In this document: in pieces, positions 8,687-52,233 of the stretch | Layout of the letters: every line of letters begins with the position of its first letter | Numbering within the stretch: position 1 is the first letter of the stretch | From: Flavobacterium luteum | Lineage (GTDB): Bacteria; Bacteroidota; Bacteroidia; Flavobacteriales; Flavobacteriaceae | DNA: 64,000 nucleotides | Direction: 5' to 3' | NCBI RefSeq assembly: GCF_008806775.1 | Contig: NZ_WAEM01000002.1 | Coordinates: 248,001 to 312,000 of the forward strand | Program-made: the position numbers and the translations under genes | Notes under the pieces: generated by a model | Told to the model about the DNA's origin: nothing | What the model saw: only the letters and a program-made list of their open reading frames with translations | Database searches by the model: none

Positions 8687-9316
8687 ATGATTAAAGTTTG
8701 TTTAGCTGATAATTATCCCGTAGTACATTTTGGAGTAAAATCATATTTTAGGGATCATGCTACAATAAGTATAGTTGCTAATGTAGGGAACTTTTCTATG
8801 GTGAAAGATGTTCTTTATACCAAAGAAATTGACGTATTAGTTATTGATTTAGATTTGGAAGGAATGTCTAGTCTTTATGAATTAAAAGCAATTATTAAAC
8901 ACTACACCAAAACTAAAATCATTATTTTTAGTGGTTATTCTGAACAAATATATGCCCCTAATGCTATAAAAGCGGGAGTTGCAGGATATGTTCACAAAAC
9001 CGCAAAATTAGAGACTTTAGGTATTGCCATCACAAAAGTACAACAAGGTCAGATTATTTTGAACGATGCCATTAAGAAGAGTTTAGCTTTAATTGCAAAA
9101 CAGAATAAAAGCGAACGTTTGTATAGAAAATTATCAAACAGAGAAATTGAAGTACTGCGTTATTTAAGTAATGGTAAAAAAAATAATGAAATTTCGGCCA
9201 TTCTTGGTTTGAATGAAAAAACGATTAGTACTTATAAATTAAGATTATTAACTAAATTGAACGTAACAAATCTTGTTGATTTAGTGAATAAAGCCAAAAC
9301 TCTTGAAATCGTCTAA
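8687..9316 (+). CDS. NarL/FixJ-type response regulator (orphan)
   Basis: The 209-residue protein has a receiver domain (about 1-120) and a LuxR-type helix-turn-helix (about 145-205, LSNREIEVLRYLSNGKKNNEIS). The receiver keeps acidic Asp8, phospho-acceptor Asp54 in VIDLDLEGM, Ser82 and Lys104 (GYVHKTA), so phosphorylation looks possible. No sensor kinase is nearby. Its stop overlaps the convergent dnaG stop by 4 bases. The target genes are unknown. Confidence 0.85.
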   Translation: MIKVCLADNYPVVHFGVKSYFRDHATISIVANVGNFSMVKDVLYTKEIDVLVIDLDLEGMSSLYELKAIIKHYTKTKIIIFSGYSEQIYAPNAIKAGVAGYVHKTAKLETLGIAITKVQQGQIILNDAIKKSLALIAKQNKSERLYRKLSNREIEVLRYLSNGKKNNEISAILGLNEKTISTYKLRLLTKLNVTNLVDLVNKAKTLEIV

Positions 9317-11289
9317 TTATAGCGAGACATTACTCTTCCTAGCTTTTTAGAAAAAGAATTTATTAGTTTAGAATAATCTACAGCCATAGCCATTGACTCA
9401 GAATTGTCTGCATCCACTTCCGATGAAATAGATGCTTTGAGTTCTTCGATAATTCCATCTACTAGAAACCACCTCATTGTTAGTATAGTTTCAGACACGT
9501 ATTGTGAAATGGTTTGGTCTTTTAGTTTTACAATAATATGTTGGCCTTCCCAATTGTGTAAAGTTTGTTGTTCATCTATCATTAGAATATCTGTAACTTC
9601 TTTAGAAAAATCAGATTCTAAATGCATTAGATACTGCTCAATTTGAAAAGTCTCGTTTTGATGATAGTAATTTATTAAGTGATTGTAAATCCCTCTAAAC
9701 AAAGGATTGGCTAATTCTACCTCATCTTCCTGTAAGCTCAAATAAATGCGCTGATAGACTTTATATTCCTTTCTTTCAATGGTATTTTCTATTTCGCCTT
9801 CTTCATTTGCTTTTAAAAGCACATCTTCAAATTCTTCAACTTTATCTCCGTACAACAAAAGAATTTCTATGATTTTTCGTTCTAATTCATATAAAACATC
9901 AATTTTTTCAACTGCAATTTTTTCGTCATTTTTTACAACTTCAAAGGCTTTTTGATCTTGTTTTAATTTTTTTCCCGCTTCAGAAATGTCCTTTTGAACC
10001 AATTGTGCCAATGTATTCAATAAAACCTGTTCAGAAATATCCATAATTCTAGAACATTCCTGTATATATATTTCGCGTTTAATACGATCAGGAATTTTAG
10101 AAATACTCAATACCATATCTCTAATTAAATCGGCTTTTTTTATAGGATCATTCTTAGCTTCATTCATCAACAACGACGCTTTAAATTGAATAAAATCTTT
10201 TGCATTATTTTCTAAATACAAAACTAAATCCTCGTAAGTTGTTTTTTTAGCAAAGCTATCGGGGTCTTCGCCTTCAGGAAAGGTGCACACTTTTACATTC
10301 ATGCCTTCCTCAAGGATTAAATCGATTCCACGAATAGAAGCTCGAAGTCCGGCGGCATCACCATCATAAAGTACTGTAATATTTTTGGTTAATCTATTTA
10401 TTAATCGAATTTGATCGGGAGTTAATGCTGTCCCTGAAGATGCTACTACATTTTCTATTCCCGATTGATTAAACTGAATTACATCAGTATACCCTTCAAC
10501 CAAATAACAATTGTCTTGCTTAGCGATGGCTTGCTTGGCTTGAAAGATTCCGTATAGCACTTTGCTTTTATGATAAATATCGCTTTCAGGAGAATTTAAA
10601 TATTTTGCTGCTTTTTTATCATTTCCTAGAATCCTAGCTCCAAAACCTAGAATTCTTCCCGACATACTTTGTATAGGAAACATTACTCGACCTCTAAAAC
10701 GATCTATAAGCTTGTCTTCCTTAACAATTGTGAGTCCTGTACTTTCTAGAAATTCTATTTTATATCCTTTCCCCAAAGCTTCTTTTGAGAAAGAATCCCA
10801 AACTTCAGGCGAATATCCTAAAACGAATTTTTTGATGGTTTCATTGGTAAAACCACGTTCTCTAAAATAAGTATAGCCAATGGCTTTACCTTCCTCTACA
10901 TTTAATAAAGTATCGTGAAAATAATTTTTTGCAAATTCAGTTACGAGATACATACTTTCTCGAACATCTGTAATGGCTTTTTCTTCATCAGTTTGTTCGG
11001 TTTCTTCAATTTCGATATTGTATTTTTTGGCTAAATACCGAATGGCTTCTGGATAGGTAAAATGAGAATGTTCCATCAAGAAAGCCACAGCATTGCCACC
11101 TTTTCCCGAACTAAAATCTTTCCAAATTCCCTTTGCTGGCGACACCATAAAGGATGGAGAGCGCTCATCTGAAAACGGACTCAACCCTTTGAAATTACTT
11201 CCAGCACGTTTTAATTGTACAAAATCGCCAATAACTTCCTCTACTCGAGCAGTTTCGAAAACGGTATCTATGGTGGCTTTTGAAATCAA
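9313..11289 (-). CDS. dnaG: DNA primase DnaG (zinc ligands absent)
   Basis: The protein has 658 residues: an N-terminal CHC2-type domain (about 1-100), the primase core with Toprim motifs (YLVEGYTDVI and LYDGDAAGLRA), and a C-terminal helicase-interaction region. It makes RNA primers at replication forks. Notably, the positions that hold Cys-His-Cys-Cys in most primases read Ser37, Ser40, Asp58 and Ser61 (SPFS and DFSS), so this ribbon cannot bind zinc in the normal way. The rest of the ribbon (SPSFMVSP, GKGGNAV) is conserved, so the fold is probably kept. Confidence 0.95.
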   Translation of the reverse strand: MISKATIDTVFETARVEEVIGDFVQLKRAGSNFKGLSPFSDERSPSFMVSPAKGIWKDFSSGKGGNAVAFLMEHSHFTYPEAIRYLAKKYNIEIEETEQTDEEKAITDVRESMYLVTEFAKNYFHDTLLNVEEGKAIGYTYFRERGFTNETIKKFVLGYSPEVWDSFSKEALGKGYKIEFLESTGLTIVKEDKLIDRFRGRVMFPIQSMSGRILGFGARILGNDKKAAKYLNSPESDIYHKSKVLYGIFQAKQAIAKQDNCYLVEGYTDVIQFNQSGIENVVASSGTALTPDQIRLINRLTKNITVLYDGDAAGLRASIRGIDLILEEGMNVKVCTFPEGEDPDSFAKKTTYEDLVLYLENNAKDFIQFKASLLMNEAKNDPIKKADLIRDMVLSISKIPDRIKREIYIQECSRIMDISEQVLLNTLAQLVQKDISEAGKKLKQDQKAFEVVKNDEKIAVEKIDVLYELERKIIEILLLYGDKVEEFEDVLLKANEEGEIENTIERKEYKVYQRIYLSLQEDEVELANPLFRGIYNHLINYYHQNETFQIEQYLMHLESDFSKEVTDILMIDEQQTLHNWEGQHIIVKLKDQTISQYVSETILTMRWFLVDGIIEELKASISSEVDADNSESMAMAVDYSKLINSFSKKLGRVMSRYN

Positions 11290-27544: not shown

Positions 27545-30500
27545 TTATCCAACCAAATTAATCACTTTCCCAGGAACAATAATTACTTTTTTAGGTGCAT
27601 TTCCTGCTAATTGTTTTATCGTTCTTTCATCTTTCATGATGATTTCCTCAATTTGATCTGGAGTTAAATCTAAAGGCAATTCGATGGTGAAACGCATTTT
27701 TCCGTTGAAAGAAACTGGATATTCCTTACTGCTTTCTATTAAATATTTTTCGTCTAATGCTGGAAAATCAACCGTAGCAATTGAACCAGAATGTCCTAAT
27801 TGACTCCACAATTCCTCAGCAATGTGTGGCGCATAAGGCGATATCAAAATGGCTAACGGTTCTAGAATTGCACGAGAATGACAATTTTGAGCCGACAGTT
27901 CATTCACACAAATCATAAACTGCGAAACCGAAGTGTTGAAAGAAAATCCTTCAATATCTTCAGCTACTTTTTTGATGGTTTTATGTAACGACTTTAAATT
28001 GTCTTTGGTTGGTTCGGCATCAGTAACACAAAACATGTTCTGTTCTCCCCCTTCGGGGGAGTTAGAGGGGGATTCAAAATACAAACGCCATAATTTTTTT
28101 AAAAAACCAAAAACTCCAGAAATTCCTGCTGTATTCCATGGTTTTGCTTGTTCTAAGGGTCCTAAAAACATTTCGTACAAACGCAAGGTATCGGCTCCGT
28201 ATTCATTACAAATATCATCTGGAGTAACTACATTGTATTTGGATTTGGACATTTTTTCGACCTCGCGAACAACAGTAATATTTTTATTCTCGATTACATC
28301 ATTACCATCAAAATAAGATGCATTATACAACCTTTTATATCTTTCATCTTTAGATAAATCTGTTAAATCTATTTCGTTCTTTGAATTGACATATTTAACA
28401 TCTATTGACGACTTAAAACAGACAAAACTTCTTTCTAATCCTGATAATCGATTATTAAAACTTTCAAAAACTGATAATCTTTCATCAAGAAATTCAAATA
28501 ATTTTTTTGGTAAATTGTTTATTAAACCTCCATTCATATATTCTTTATATGTTTGAAAGTTTATCAAAACTTGTTCAAAGGCATTTTCATCACCAATTTT
28601 TGCTTGTAAAACAAACACAAATGCGCTTTCTCCCAAAATCATCCCCTGATTAATCAACTTCTTGAAAGGTTCTTCTGTCGGTGCAAAACCTTTGTCTTTT
28701 AAAAATTTATTCCAAAAACGGGAGTACAATAAATGTCCAGTGGCGTGTTCGCTTCCGCCAATATATAAATCCACGCTTTCCCAATAGTTTAAAGCTTCTT
28801 TACTGGCAAATTCTCCGTCGTTATGTGCATCCATATACCGCATCCAATACCAAGAACTTCCCGCCCAACCCGGCATGGTGTTCAATTCTAATGGAAAAAT
28901 GGTTTTATTGTCGACCAAATTCGTTTCAACTACTTTACAGTTTAGACTGTCCCAAGCCCAAACGGTAGCATTTCCTAATGGCGGTAATCCGTCTTCGGTT
29001 GGTAAGTATTTTTCTACTTCTGGCAACACGATTGGTAAATGTTTTGCATCAATCATTTGCGGTAAGCCATTCACATAATACACTGGAAATGGTTCGCCCC
29101 AATATCTTTGGCGAGAGAAAACGGCGTCACGCAAACGGTAATTGATTTTGCCTTTTCCTTGACCTATTTTTTCTAATTCTGAGATAACTTTCTTAGTTGC
29201 TTCTTTATAATTCAATCCATTCAAGAAATCAGAATTGGCAATAACAACGTTGTCTTTAGAACTGAATGCTTCTTTTGAAATATCGGCATTGGCAAAAATA
29301 TTCTTGATCTCTTGCATTCCCTCTTGCCCCTTGAAGAAATTCGCAAAAGCATAATCTCGTTCATCACCACAGGGAACCGCCATAACAGCGCCAGTTCCGT
29401 ATCCTGCCAAAACATAGTCTCCAATCCAAACTGGAATTGGTTCTTTGGTAAACGGATGCTCTGCATAGGCTCCCGTAAAAACACCTGAAATGGTTTTTAC
29501 ATCTGCCATGCGCTCTCTTTCAGAACGTTTTGCGGATTTTTCGATATAGGCTTCAACAGCTGCTTTTTGTTCTGGAGTGGTGATTTGAGCCACCAATTCG
29601 TGTTCTGGAGCCAATGTCATAAAGGTTACTCCAAAAATAGTGTCAGGCCGTGTTGTGAATACTTCGATATTTGCTTCGTGATTTTTTAATTTAAAAGAAA
29701 CCATCGCTCCAACCGATTTTCCAATCCAATTTCTTTGGCTTTCCTTAATGCTTTCGCTCCAATCAATGCTTTCTAAACCTTGCAACAAACGTTCCGCATA
29801 GGCTGAAATTCGCATACTCCATTGGGTCATTTTCTTGCGAACAACTAGGAAACCTCCGCGTTCTGAAACGCCATTTACAATTTCGTCATTGGCTAAAACA
29901 GTTCCCAAGCCTGGACACCAGTTTACTTCAGTTTCCGCCAGATAAGTTAATCGATATTGTAATAGTATTTTTTGTCGTTCTTCTGATGAAAATGCGTTCC
30001 ATTCGCTTAACGAAAAAGTTGGAATGTTATCATCGCAAACCGCATTTACATTAGCATTTCCTTCGCTTTCGAAAACAGCAATTAGCGTTGCAATATCTTC
30101 GGCTTTGTCAGTATTTTTATTGTACCAAGAATTGAATAATTGAATAAAAATCCATTGGGTGTGCTTGTAATAATCTGGATTTGAAGTACGGACTTCACGA
30201 CTCCAATCGAACGAAAAACCAATTTTATCCAATTGCTTTCTATAGCCTGCTATTTGTTTTCCTTCTTTATCTACTCCACCATCAATATTTACTGAAGTTG
30301 TGTCTTCTGGGCGTTGCCCCGTTTGAATAGCATATTGCTCAGCTGGCAACCCAAAGCTATCATAACCCATTGGGTGCAGAACATTGAATCCGCGATGTCT
30401 CTTGTATCGCGCATACACATCAGATGCGATGTATCCTAACGGATGCCCCACATGTAATCCTGCTCCTGATGGATAAGGAAACATATCTAAAACATAAAAT

Positions 30501-30595
30501 TTAGGTTTGTCGGAATGGTTTGATGCTGCAAATGTTTGGTTTTCTGACCAGAATTTTTGCCATTTAGCTTCTATTTCGTTGGGATTGTATTTCAT
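27545..30595 (-). CDS. leuS: Leucyl-tRNA synthetase
   Basis: The 1016-residue class I synthetase has the HIGH-type motif HVGH (about 48-51, within GAGLHVGHPLGY), the CP1 editing domain (about 300-420, TTRPDTIFGVTFM and GTGAVMAVPCGDERDYAF in parts) and KMSKS (781-785). The start at 30595 (MKYNPNEIEAKWQKFW) is preferred over an ATG 12 codons upstream that lies in a repeat. Two oddities: about 115 residues separate MILGESAFV from REVEKMSKS, which seems long, and residues 841-851 (ESPSNSPEGGE) are encoded by a palindromic element. Confidence 0.96.
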   Translation of the reverse strand: MKYNPNEIEAKWQKFWSENQTFAASNHSDKPKFYVLDMFPYPSGAGLHVGHPLGYIASDVYARYKRHRGFNVLHPMGYDSFGLPAEQYAIQTGQRPEDTTSVNIDGGVDKEGKQIAGYRKQLDKIGFSFDWSREVRTSNPDYYKHTQWIFIQLFNSWYNKNTDKAEDIATLIAVFESEGNANVNAVCDDNIPTFSLSEWNAFSSEERQKILLQYRLTYLAETEVNWCPGLGTVLANDEIVNGVSERGGFLVVRKKMTQWSMRISAYAERLLQGLESIDWSESIKESQRNWIGKSVGAMVSFKLKNHEANIEVFTTRPDTIFGVTFMTLAPEHELVAQITTPEQKAAVEAYIEKSAKRSERERMADVKTISGVFTGAYAEHPFTKEPIPVWIGDYVLAGYGTGAVMAVPCGDERDYAFANFFKGQEGMQEIKNIFANADISKEAFSSKDNVVIANSDFLNGLNYKEATKKVISELEKIGQGKGKINYRLRDAVFSRQRYWGEPFPVYYVNGLPQMIDAKHLPIVLPEVEKYLPTEDGLPPLGNATVWAWDSLNCKVVETNLVDNKTIFPLELNTMPGWAGSSWYWMRYMDAHNDGEFASKEALNYWESVDLYIGGSEHATGHLLYSRFWNKFLKDKGFAPTEEPFKKLINQGMILGESAFVFVLQAKIGDENAFEQVLINFQTYKEYMNGGLINNLPKKLFEFLDERLSVFESFNNRLSGLERSFVCFKSSIDVKYVNSKNEIDLTDLSKDERYKRLYNASYFDGNDVIENKNITVVREVEKMSKSKYNVVTPDDICNEYGADTLRLYEMFLGPLEQAKPWNTAGISGVFGFLKKLWRLYFESPSNSPEGGEQNMFCVTDAEPTKDNLKSLHKTIKKVAEDIEGFSFNTSVSQFMICVNELSAQNCHSRAILEPLAILISPYAPHIAEELWSQLGHSGSIATVDFPALDEKYLIESSKEYPVSFNGKMRFTIELPLDLTPDQIEEIIMKDERTIKQLAGNAPKKVIIVPGKVINLVG
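28043..28072. repeat. REP-like palindrome inside leuS
   Basis: CTCCCCC-TTC-GGGGGAG forms a perfect 7-bp GC-rich stem, followed by TTAGAGGGGGA. It is read in frame as SPSNSPEGGE in LeuS. A GC-rich hairpin is out of keeping with the surrounding AT-rich coding DNA. Confidence 0.75.
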
Positions 30596-30604
30596 AAAAA
30601 GATT

Positions 30605-30636
30605 CAAAGTTAGAACGTGACAAAGTTGCAAAGCCT
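30605..30636. repeat. CAAAGTT octamer repeat upstream of leuS
   Basis: CAAAGTT at 30605 and 30621 and CAAAGCC at 30629, with 16- and 8-base spacings identical to the copy upstream of dnaG. The minus strand reads TAACTTTG (plus 30605-30612), a -7 consensus match close to the leuS start. Confidence 0.6.
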
Positions 30637-51378: not shown

Positions 51379-52233
51379 ATGGCTTGGTTTAAACGAACAG
51401 AAAAAGGAATTACAACAGCAACCGAAGACAAAAGAGATGTACCAAAAGGATTGTGGTATAAATCTCCTACTGGAAAAATAATCGATGCTGATGAATTGGC
51501 ACGCAATCTTTGGGTTAGTCCCGAAGATGATTTTCATGTACGAATTGGAAGCGCTGAATATTTTGAAATTTTGTTTGACAATAATGAATTCAAAGAGTTA
51601 GATAAAAATCTACAATCTAAAGATCCATTGCATTTTGAAGACACTAAAAAGTATGCCGATCGTTTAAAAGACGCAATGTCTAAAACAAATCTTAAAGATG
51701 CCGTTCGTACTGGAGTTGGAAAATCTAAAGGAAAAGATTTAGTGATTTGTTGTATGGATTTTGCTTTTATAGGAGGTTCTGTTGGAGCAGTTGTTGGAGA
51801 AAAAATTGCTCGTGCAATAGATTATTCAATCAAAAACAAAGTTCCTTTTTTAATGATTTCAAAATCAGGTGGGGCTAGAATGATGGAAGCAGCCTATTCG
51901 TTGATGCAATTAGCCAAAACAGCGGCTAAATTAGCGCAACTAGCCGAAGCCGAGATTCCTTACATTTCATTATGTACTGATCCAACAACGGGAGGAACAA
52001 CTGCTTCTTATGCCATGCTGGGTGACGTAAACATTTCTGAACCTGGAGCCTTAATTGGTTTTGCTGGTCCTAGAGTGGTAAAAGACACCACTGGTAAAGA
52101 TTTGCCAGAAGGTTTTCAAACTGCTGAGTTTGTTTTAGATCACGGTTTCTTAGATTTTATAACTCCAAGAAAAGAGCTAAAAGACAAGATAAATTTGTAT
52201 CTCGATTTGATACAGAATAATGAAATTAGATAA
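51379..52233 (+). CDS. accD: Acetyl-CoA carboxylase carboxyltransferase subunit beta (zinc ligands absent)
   Basis: The 284-residue beta subunit transfers CO2 from carboxybiotin to acetyl-CoA with AccA. The carboxyltransferase core is clear: [19 protein letters not shown] and [20 protein letters not shown] (both in part). The N-terminal zinc ribbon is altered: where the family has two CxxC pairs, residues read SPTG (29-32) and SPED (47-50), and no Cys occurs in the first 100 residues. The surrounding framework ([20 protein letters not shown]) is intact. Compare the same change in DnaG here. Confidence 0.95.

What the first reader, a model, noticed from the sequence alone, without database searches (positions are those of the whole stretch)
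51457..51534. AccD has lost its zinc-ribbon cysteines in the same style as DnaG
The two CxxC pairs of AccD read SPTG and SPED, and no Cys occurs in the first 100 residues. A second, unrelated essential zinc ribbon in the same window shows Cys-to-Ser and Cys-to-Asp replacement in an otherwise conserved frame. Two independent losses suggest a trend to metal-free ribbons (zinc economy) in this lineage and not relaxed selection on one gene.
Basis: partly seen in the sequence, partly recalled or inferred. Interest (0 to 1): 0.6.

Follow-up and report, generated by a model that had tools for sequence, protein, structure and literature searches.

The report
Zinc ribbons rebuilt without zinc
In these bacteria several important proteins, including a fatty-acid enzyme subunit and the DNA primase, have swapped the cysteines that normally hold a zinc atom for conserved zinc-free sequences, and such swaps tend to occur together in the same lineages.

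Summary
AccD (51379-52233 +) keeps its N-terminal ribbon region but has none of the four zinc cysteines. DnaG (9313-11289 -) has lost all four ligands too, and LeuRS in the same window has lost most of zinc site 1. Corrections: AccD's first knuckle is one residue shorter than CxxCG, not a plain substitution; and 'two losses' understates it. Of 151 AccD sequences read, 67 lack the Cys4 set. AccD and DnaG each need 5 losses on a 29-genome species tree. L32, UvrA zinc module I and DUF164 show losses as well. The RpoC, MetG and UvrA module II ribbons are kept in 29 of 29 panel genomes, LigA clearly in 27 of 29, so the loss is selective. Outside AccD and LeuRS the second Cys of a CxxCG knuckle becomes Ser/Thr before Gly in 17 of 19 inferred losses. 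Losses cluster by genome beyond independent evolution (variance P at most 0.0065 in every run with three or more families); AccD-DnaG alone is weak. An AlphaFold2 model keeps the zinc-AccD fold. The trend is supported; 'zinc economy' as cause is untested. Zinc-free ribosomal proteins and DUF164 of Bacteroidetes were already in print. New variant of a known kind.

The parts
51379..52233 (+). accD, acetyl-CoA carboxylase carboxyltransferase subunit beta, 284 aa
   Evidence: TIGR00515 above cut-off; best solved relatives 2f9y, 8uxz, 2f9i
51463..51474 (+). first knuckle, residues 29-32 SPTG in place of CxxCG (one residue shorter)
   Evidence: alignments
51517..51528 (+). second knuckle, residues 47-50 SPED in place of CPxC
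   Evidence: Ser47 and Asp50 45/45 in the Flavobacteriaceae clade
9313..11289 (-). dnaG, DNA primase, 658 aa
   Evidence: TIGR01391 419.7 bits, PF01807 91.3 bits although all four ligands are replaced
11107..11181 (-). DnaG former CHC2 ribbon, residues 37-61: S37, S40, D58, S61 in place of C, H, C, C
27545..30631 (-). leuS, leucyl-tRNA synthetase; zinc site 1 (29852-29917) reads CPGLG...SERGG against CPKC...CWRH in 1h3n (which residues are ligands there is recalled); the stretch aligned with the later Cys pair of 1h3n also lacks Cys

Best explanation
AccD of this Flavobacterium-like genome folds its N-terminal ribbon without a metal. The two zinc knuckles have become ordinary beta-hairpin turns (Ser/Thr-Pro-x-Gly and Ser-Pro-Glu-Asp), stabilised by side-chain caps of backbone NH groups in place of Cys-zinc bonds. 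It is one case of a recurrent replacement in Bacteroidota in which selected structural zinc ribbons (AccD, DnaG, L32, UvrA module I, DUF164) were converted several times, outside AccD most often from CxxCG to (Asp/Cys)-x-x-(Ser/Thr)-Gly, and the conversions cluster by lineage. Shown by sequence: the losses, their conservation in AccD, their repetition, the shared replacement outside AccD, and the clustering. Predicted: retention of the fold. Inferred: absence of metal, the turn and capping chemistry, and lower zinc demand as a benefit.
For: Zinc-less AccD 67 of 151 in eight residue patterns, 5 losses on the species tree. DnaG zinc-less 24 of 60; 5 losses on the species tree, 6 changes on the DnaG tree of which supported branches force at least 5. 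Second Cys of the knuckle replaced by Ser/Thr: DnaG 24/24, L32 19/19 (all Thr), DUF164 13/13, UvrA-I 21/25; by inferred independent loss 17 of 19, P 6e-13 against a rough BLOSUM62 yardstick (the residue of each loss was assigned by hand). Clustering: variance P 0.0005, mean-phi P 0.022; variants. A model of the window AccD built from zinc-less sequences only has pLDDT 80-87 over residues 31-60 and aligns from residue 24 on with zinc-type AccD 8uz2_H (Z 32.4, rmsd 2.2, 260 residues) and 2f9y_B (Z 31.6, rmsd 2.0, 254); a Balneolaceae AccD with a separate loss does likewise. General Cys avoidance is not seen (rho -0.17, P 0.38; contrasts r -0.22, P 0.26).
Against: No metal content is known. AlphaFold2 may reproduce a remembered fold, its confidence here is moderate (mean pLDDT 73.5), and coordinates were not readable, so no hydrogen bond was checked. 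AccD itself fits the shared replacement least: the fourth position of knuckle 1 is deleted in 62 of 67, and knuckle 2 mostly takes Asp there (59 of 67). LeuRS site 1 does not follow it (CPxLG...SERGG), nor do 4 of 25 UvrA-I. Clustering rests on 29 genomes and on families partly picked because they vary; the mean-phi statistic is weaker (P 0.02-0.12 with three or more families, 0 on the levelled tree, 0.19 for AccD and DnaG alone).
Confidence: 0.72

Rival explanations
1. The losses are independent, gene-by-gene drift of structural zinc sites that tolerate replacement; the apparent clustering comes from shared ancestry and a few fast lineages.
For: AccD-DnaG alone: phi 0.31, P 0.17; only 4 independent pairs, no power. 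The labile families are a subset: RpoC and MetG never vary in 29 genomes.
Against: The variance of losses per genome exceeds independent simulation in every variant run (P 0 to 0.021), also without the deviating genome G109 (P 0.0015). The models used one rate per family and no lineage-specific rates.
Confidence: 0.3
2. Selection was against oxidisable zinc-thiolates (oxidative stress), not against zinc use; loss of zinc is a by-product.
For: The four panel genomes with no loss in the five labile families (G018, G074, G132, G105) include a near relative of Ignavibacterium (G132), whose anaerobic lifestyle is recalled, not tested.
Against: Cys content outside zinc sites does not track the losses; Cys is often kept at the first knuckle position (L32 13/19, UvrA-I 10/24).
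Confidence: 0.2
3. The replaced ribbons still bind a metal through Asp, Ser and the invariant His53, or bind another metal.
For: Asp50 and His53 are 45/45 in the Flavobacteriaceae clade.
Against: His53 is invariant in the alignment that also holds Cys-type AccD, so it is no replacement ligand; Ser/Thr and Gly are poor zinc ligands (established chemistry); other losses use other residues (VTDS, S-DS, DTSS, S-VE).
Confidence: 0.06

Closest known systems
C+ / C- pairs of ribosomal proteins (L32, L36, L31, S14, L33 and others)
   Same: Zinc and zinc-free versions of one protein with lineage-wide replacement; Table 2 of PMC3087516 (section 13 read) lists Bacteroidetes as C- for L36, L31, S14, L33, S18, L28 and S4 and mixed for L32, and the text names zinc economy as a possible cause
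   Different: Here it extends to proteins outside the ribosome (AccD, DnaG, UvrA module I); each of 158 genomes had one AccD match at E 1e-40, so no C+/C- paralogue pair was seen
DUF164 / Zn_ribbon_9 proteins of Flavobacteria
   Same: PMC3372290 (passages read) reports SXXS-X20-DXXS in place of the two CXXC motifs in Flavobacteria, close to the DnaG pattern SxxS...DxxS here
   Different: The passages read treat this one family, call zinc binding unclear and make no link to other families
Adenylate kinase LID domain (zinc-Cys4 in some bacteria, hydrogen-bond network in E. coli)
   Same: A zinc ribbon kept in fold with ligands replaced by residues that hydrogen-bond
   Different: Recalled only; the search listing showed no paper on it. 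One enzyme, not a multi-protein pattern
E. coli / S. aureus AccD zinc finger
   Same: Same protein and predicted fold
   Different: In E. coli the zinc finger is said to bind accA/accD mRNA and to be required for catalysis (review PMC3896788, passages read); here the zinc ligands are gone

Membership tests
AccD (TIGR00515) | full-length match above curated cut-off | tested here: met
   330.7 bits against 317.45, residues 1-281
AccD zinc ribbon (PF17848) | four Cys in two CxxC pairs / profile match | tested here: not met
   no Cys at the four positions; no profile match in the protein at E 1e-3 nor in the genome at E 0.01
AccD ribbon fold | ribbon fold kept over residues 24-53 | tested here: inconclusive
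   AlphaFold2 model aligns from residue 24 on with 8uz2_H and 2f9y_B; a prediction, not a structure
DnaG (TIGR01391) | match above curated cut-off | tested here: met
   419.7 bits against 283.6
CHC2 zinc finger of DnaG | Cys-His-Cys-Cys ligands | tested here: not met
   S, S, D, S at the four positions, although PF01807 matches at 91.3 bits
C- type ribosomal proteins in the same genome | zinc Cys set incomplete in L32, S14, L36 | tested here: met
   L32 CPITGE...HRAYW; S14 NRCKLTGR...ISRVTF; L36 with one Cys
metal-free AccD | no metal in the purified protein | not testable with these tools
   needs metal analysis
zinc-economy adaptation | losses follow zinc supply or zinc-responsive regulation | not tested
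   no habitat or regulon data used

The most novel reading that the evidence does not exclude
Bacteroidota lineages carried out a correlated, stepwise conversion of a defined set of structural zinc ribbons (AccD, DnaG, UvrA module I, L32, DUF164) into metal-free ribbons, largely by one substitution code, CxxCG to (D/C)-x-x-(S/T)-G, so that metal-free primase and carboxyltransferase are normal, conserved states in whole families.
Probability: 0.5. Interest if true: 0.68.

Novelty: new variant of a known kind. Interest (0 to 1): 0.55.

Why it matters
The zinc ribbons of primase (PMC6163395, passages) and of AccD (PMC3896788, passages) are described as functional parts. Lineages in which both are zinc-less allow a direct comparison of what the metal does. 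The recurring replacement gives a simple way to recognise zinc-less ribbons in annotation and to judge zinc demand from genomes. It also warns that a profile match to a zinc domain (PF01807 in this DnaG) does not show zinc binding.

Tried and rejected
General cysteine avoidance: a first count gave rho -0.55, P 0.002, but it included the zinc Cys of UvrA module I; with zinc sites masked it fell to rho -0.17, P 0.38, so I rejected it. Gene transfer as the main source: most zinc-less AccD and DnaG sit with their own lineages in the gene trees. One AccD group (Chryseobacterium/Kaistella) stands on a long branch away from its order in the AccD tree; I take that as a tree artefact, untested. A replaced metal site using His53: it is invariant in Cys-type AccD too. 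AccD-DnaG by independent pairs: 4 pairs, no power.

Corrections of my own counts. One search carried a hand-entered '18 of 19'; the right count is 17 of 19, because UvrA-I gives 3 of 5 (in one of the two others, G058 with G096, one genome has Asp and one Ser). One search lists DUF164 'lost 15' because its motif failed on two rows that keep all Cys (G064, G041); the true count is 13 of 29. One search failed and was redone. Three rows were first unread because those loci are shorter than my scripts assumed (G096 UvrA, G088 S14, G045 LigA); one search read them (UvrA module I lost and II kept; S14 zinc-free; LigA kept). LeuRS: 28 of 29 read (26, two; G017 unread); 26 lost, 2 keep most Cys (CPxD...CExC). 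The clustering test was rerun with these cells filled; some searches were made before. G096 has no L32 match. L36 was read in 13 of the 20 regions fetched for it. DnaG: 60 of 61 genomes gave a match at E 1e-20. AccD: of 158 genomes with AccD I read 70, plus 80 named records and E. coli. LigA: 27 of 29 over the cut-off, G105 weak, G109 no match. PF17848 also rings weakly (E 0.004-0.008) in f8 genomes, two of which (G076, G111) have one Cys left, so a ring does not prove four ligands.

Families were not drawn at random: RpoC, LigA, UvrA and MetG were named in the finding, L32, S14 and L36 I picked recalling that they vary, DUF164 after reading PMC3372290, LeuRS because it lies in the window. Without DUF164 the clustering stands at variance P 0.0005 and phi P 0.057 (0.002 and 0.07). 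Missing cells counted as zero in the variance. Family codes f1, f2 ... were named by their neighbours in the AccD tree; some family names are recalled.

Paper searches that showed no report of zinc loss in AccD; in DnaG; on the L32 ribbon in Bacteroidetes: (listings, plus the passages named elsewhere). Most subscription journals are not in that library.

Full report
WHAT IS THERE. The ORF 51379-52233 + is accD. Residues 27-52 read [27 protein letters not shown]. coli AccD has Cys at 27, 30, 46 and 49; the window has Ser29, a one-residue deletion, Ser47 and Asp50. So the second knuckle is a plain replacement and the first is shortened. DnaG in the same window has Ser, Ser, Asp, Ser where CHC2 primases have Cys, His, Cys, Cys. 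Leucyl-tRNA synthetase, also in the window, keeps only the first Cys of the CPKC...CWRH site seen in 1h3n, and the stretch aligned with a later Cys pair has none.

CONSERVED, NOT DECAYED. In the 45 AccD sequences of the Flavobacteriaceae clade the new residues are about as conserved as the rest of the protein: Ser47 45/45, Asp50 45/45, Gly32 45/45, Pro30 44/45; domain 0.84 against 0.86.

HOW OFTEN IT HAPPENED. I read 151 AccD sequences: 70 of the 158 unnamed Bacteroidota genomes, 80 named records and E. coli. 84 have all four Cys, 67 do not, in eight residue patterns. Zinc-less groups, named by their neighbours in the AccD tree, are Flavobacteriaceae, a Chryseobacterium/Kaistella group, a Cyclobacteriaceae/Cytophagales group (Algoriphagus and others, some with one Cys left), Balneolaceae with a sister family, and two more families (codes f29, f30). 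On a species tree of 29 genomes (RpoC, UvrA, MetG; 23 of 26 inner branches well supported) AccD needs 5 losses; on the AccD tree 8 changes. A wider profile search found the AccD zinc ribbon in 201 of 296 Bacteroidota genomes and in 7 of 14 control genomes, E. coli and B. subtilis among them. DnaG is zinc-less in 24 of 60 genomes, with 5 losses on the species tree and 6 changes on its own tree.

WHICH RIBBONS ARE KEPT. In 29 panel genomes the RpoC ribbon is kept in 29, MetG in 29, UvrA module II in 29, LigA above its profile cut-off in 27. With an incomplete ligand set: L32 19 of 28, UvrA module I 25 of 29, DUF164 13 of 29, LeuRS site 1 26 of 28 read, S14 28 of 29, L36 10 of 13 read. So zinc-site loss is broad but selective.

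A LARGELY SHARED REPLACEMENT. In CxxCG knuckles of four families the second Cys becomes Ser or Thr and the Gly stays: DnaG 24/24, L32 19/19 (all Thr), DUF164 13/13, UvrA-I 21/25. The first Cys becomes Asp or stays Cys, save three Tyr in UvrA-I. Counted by inferred independent loss it is 17 of 19, against 0.143 expected from BLOSUM62, P about 6e-13; the yardstick is rough and the residue of each loss was assigned by hand. Asp and Thr are two nucleotide steps from Cys, so this is no mutational default (genetic code). Exceptions: LeuRS (CPxLG, SERGG), 4 of 25 UvrA-I, and AccD itself, whose first knuckle has mostly lost a residue (62 of 67) and whose second mostly takes Asp (59 of 67); only 5 of 67 AccD show the full x-P-x-T-G form at knuckle 1. 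That D-P-x-T-G and S-P-x-G are natural beta-hairpin turns with side-chain caps is my inference from general knowledge of hairpin loops, not computed here.

DO LOSSES GO TOGETHER? With each family evolving independently on the tree, the observed variance of losses per genome is reached in 0.0005 of simulations and the mean correlation in 0.022. Variants, variance P / phi P: without G109 0.0015 / 0.119; equal branches 0.0065 / 0.076; levelled tree 0 / 0; other root 0.0005 / 0.036; 20 genomes 0.002 / 0.036; AccD, DnaG and DUF164 only 0.0005 / 0.024; AccD and DnaG only 0.021 / 0.19. After filling the unread cells: five families 0.0005 / 0.025; with LeuRS 0 / 0.023; without DUF164 0.0005 / 0.057; AccD and DnaG only 0.0185 / 0.19. 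The strongest of 10 pairs is AccD-DUF164 (phi 0.79, P 0.01 uncorrected). AccD and DnaG states differ in 12 of 60 genomes (7 with AccD kept and DnaG lost, 5 the reverse). So a lineage-level trend is supported; the specific AccD-DnaG link is not.

CAUSE. General cysteine avoidance is not seen once zinc sites are masked. Zinc economy was proposed for ribosomal proteins in PMC3087516 (section 13 read), where Bacteroidetes are almost wholly C-. My data extend the pattern to enzymes but contain no test of zinc supply; oxidation resistance and tolerated drift remain possible.

HOW IT PROBABLY WORKS. An AlphaFold2 model of the window AccD built from zinc-less relatives only has mean pLDDT 73.5, with 80-87 over residues 31-60, and aligns from residue 24 on with zinc-type AccD (8uz2_H Z 32.4, rmsd 2.2 over 260; 2f9y_B Z 31.6, rmsd 2.0 over 254). 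A Balneolaceae AccD with a separate loss gives a like result (pLDDT 80.7; 8uz2_H Z 32.6, rmsd 1.9); its alignment also held Cys-type rows. The likely reading is a metal-free ribbon with the same shape. In E. coli the AccD zinc finger is said to bind mRNA and to be required for catalysis (PMC3896788, passages); if so, these lineages have either lost that regulation or keep it without metal.

WHAT IS KNOWN. Zinc-free ribosomal proteins in Bacteroidetes (PMC3087516) and SXXS...DXXS DUF164 proteins in Flavobacteria (PMC3372290, passages) are in print; variable loss of zinc ligands in treble-clef folds too (PMC4999995, passages). My searches for AccD and DnaG showed no report of these losses in the held library. 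Verdict: real, conserved, recurrent; new variant of a known kind.

Noticed in passing
window 27545-30631 (-), zinc site 1 at 29852-29917: A third zinc-type protein in the window, LeuRS, lacks most zinc ligands; the loss of site 1 spans most of the phylum (26 of 28 read) and does not follow the D-x-x-S/T-G pattern.
   Followed up: partly
G109 (family code f30): loci L050, L115, L234, L341, L436: One genome outside the class has incomplete zinc ligands in AccD, DnaG, L32, UvrA module I and DUF164, and gave no match to the LigA zinc domain.
   Followed up: no
L084 (G099) against L087, L088, L094: Within one family (code f3, near Mucilaginibacter and Pedobacter in the AccD tree) one of four genomes has a zinc-less DnaG (SPFA...DFSS) while the others keep CHC2: a recent loss suited to experiment.
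   Followed up: partly
L018, L019, L161, L170, L172: AccD with exactly one of the four Cys left (TP-G...CPDD or CPED) in a Cytophagales group, possible intermediates of the loss.
   Followed up: no
L296 (G105): The LigA zinc domain of G105 is altered (CPCDHRS in place of CPxCG) and falls below the profile cut-off.
   Followed up: no
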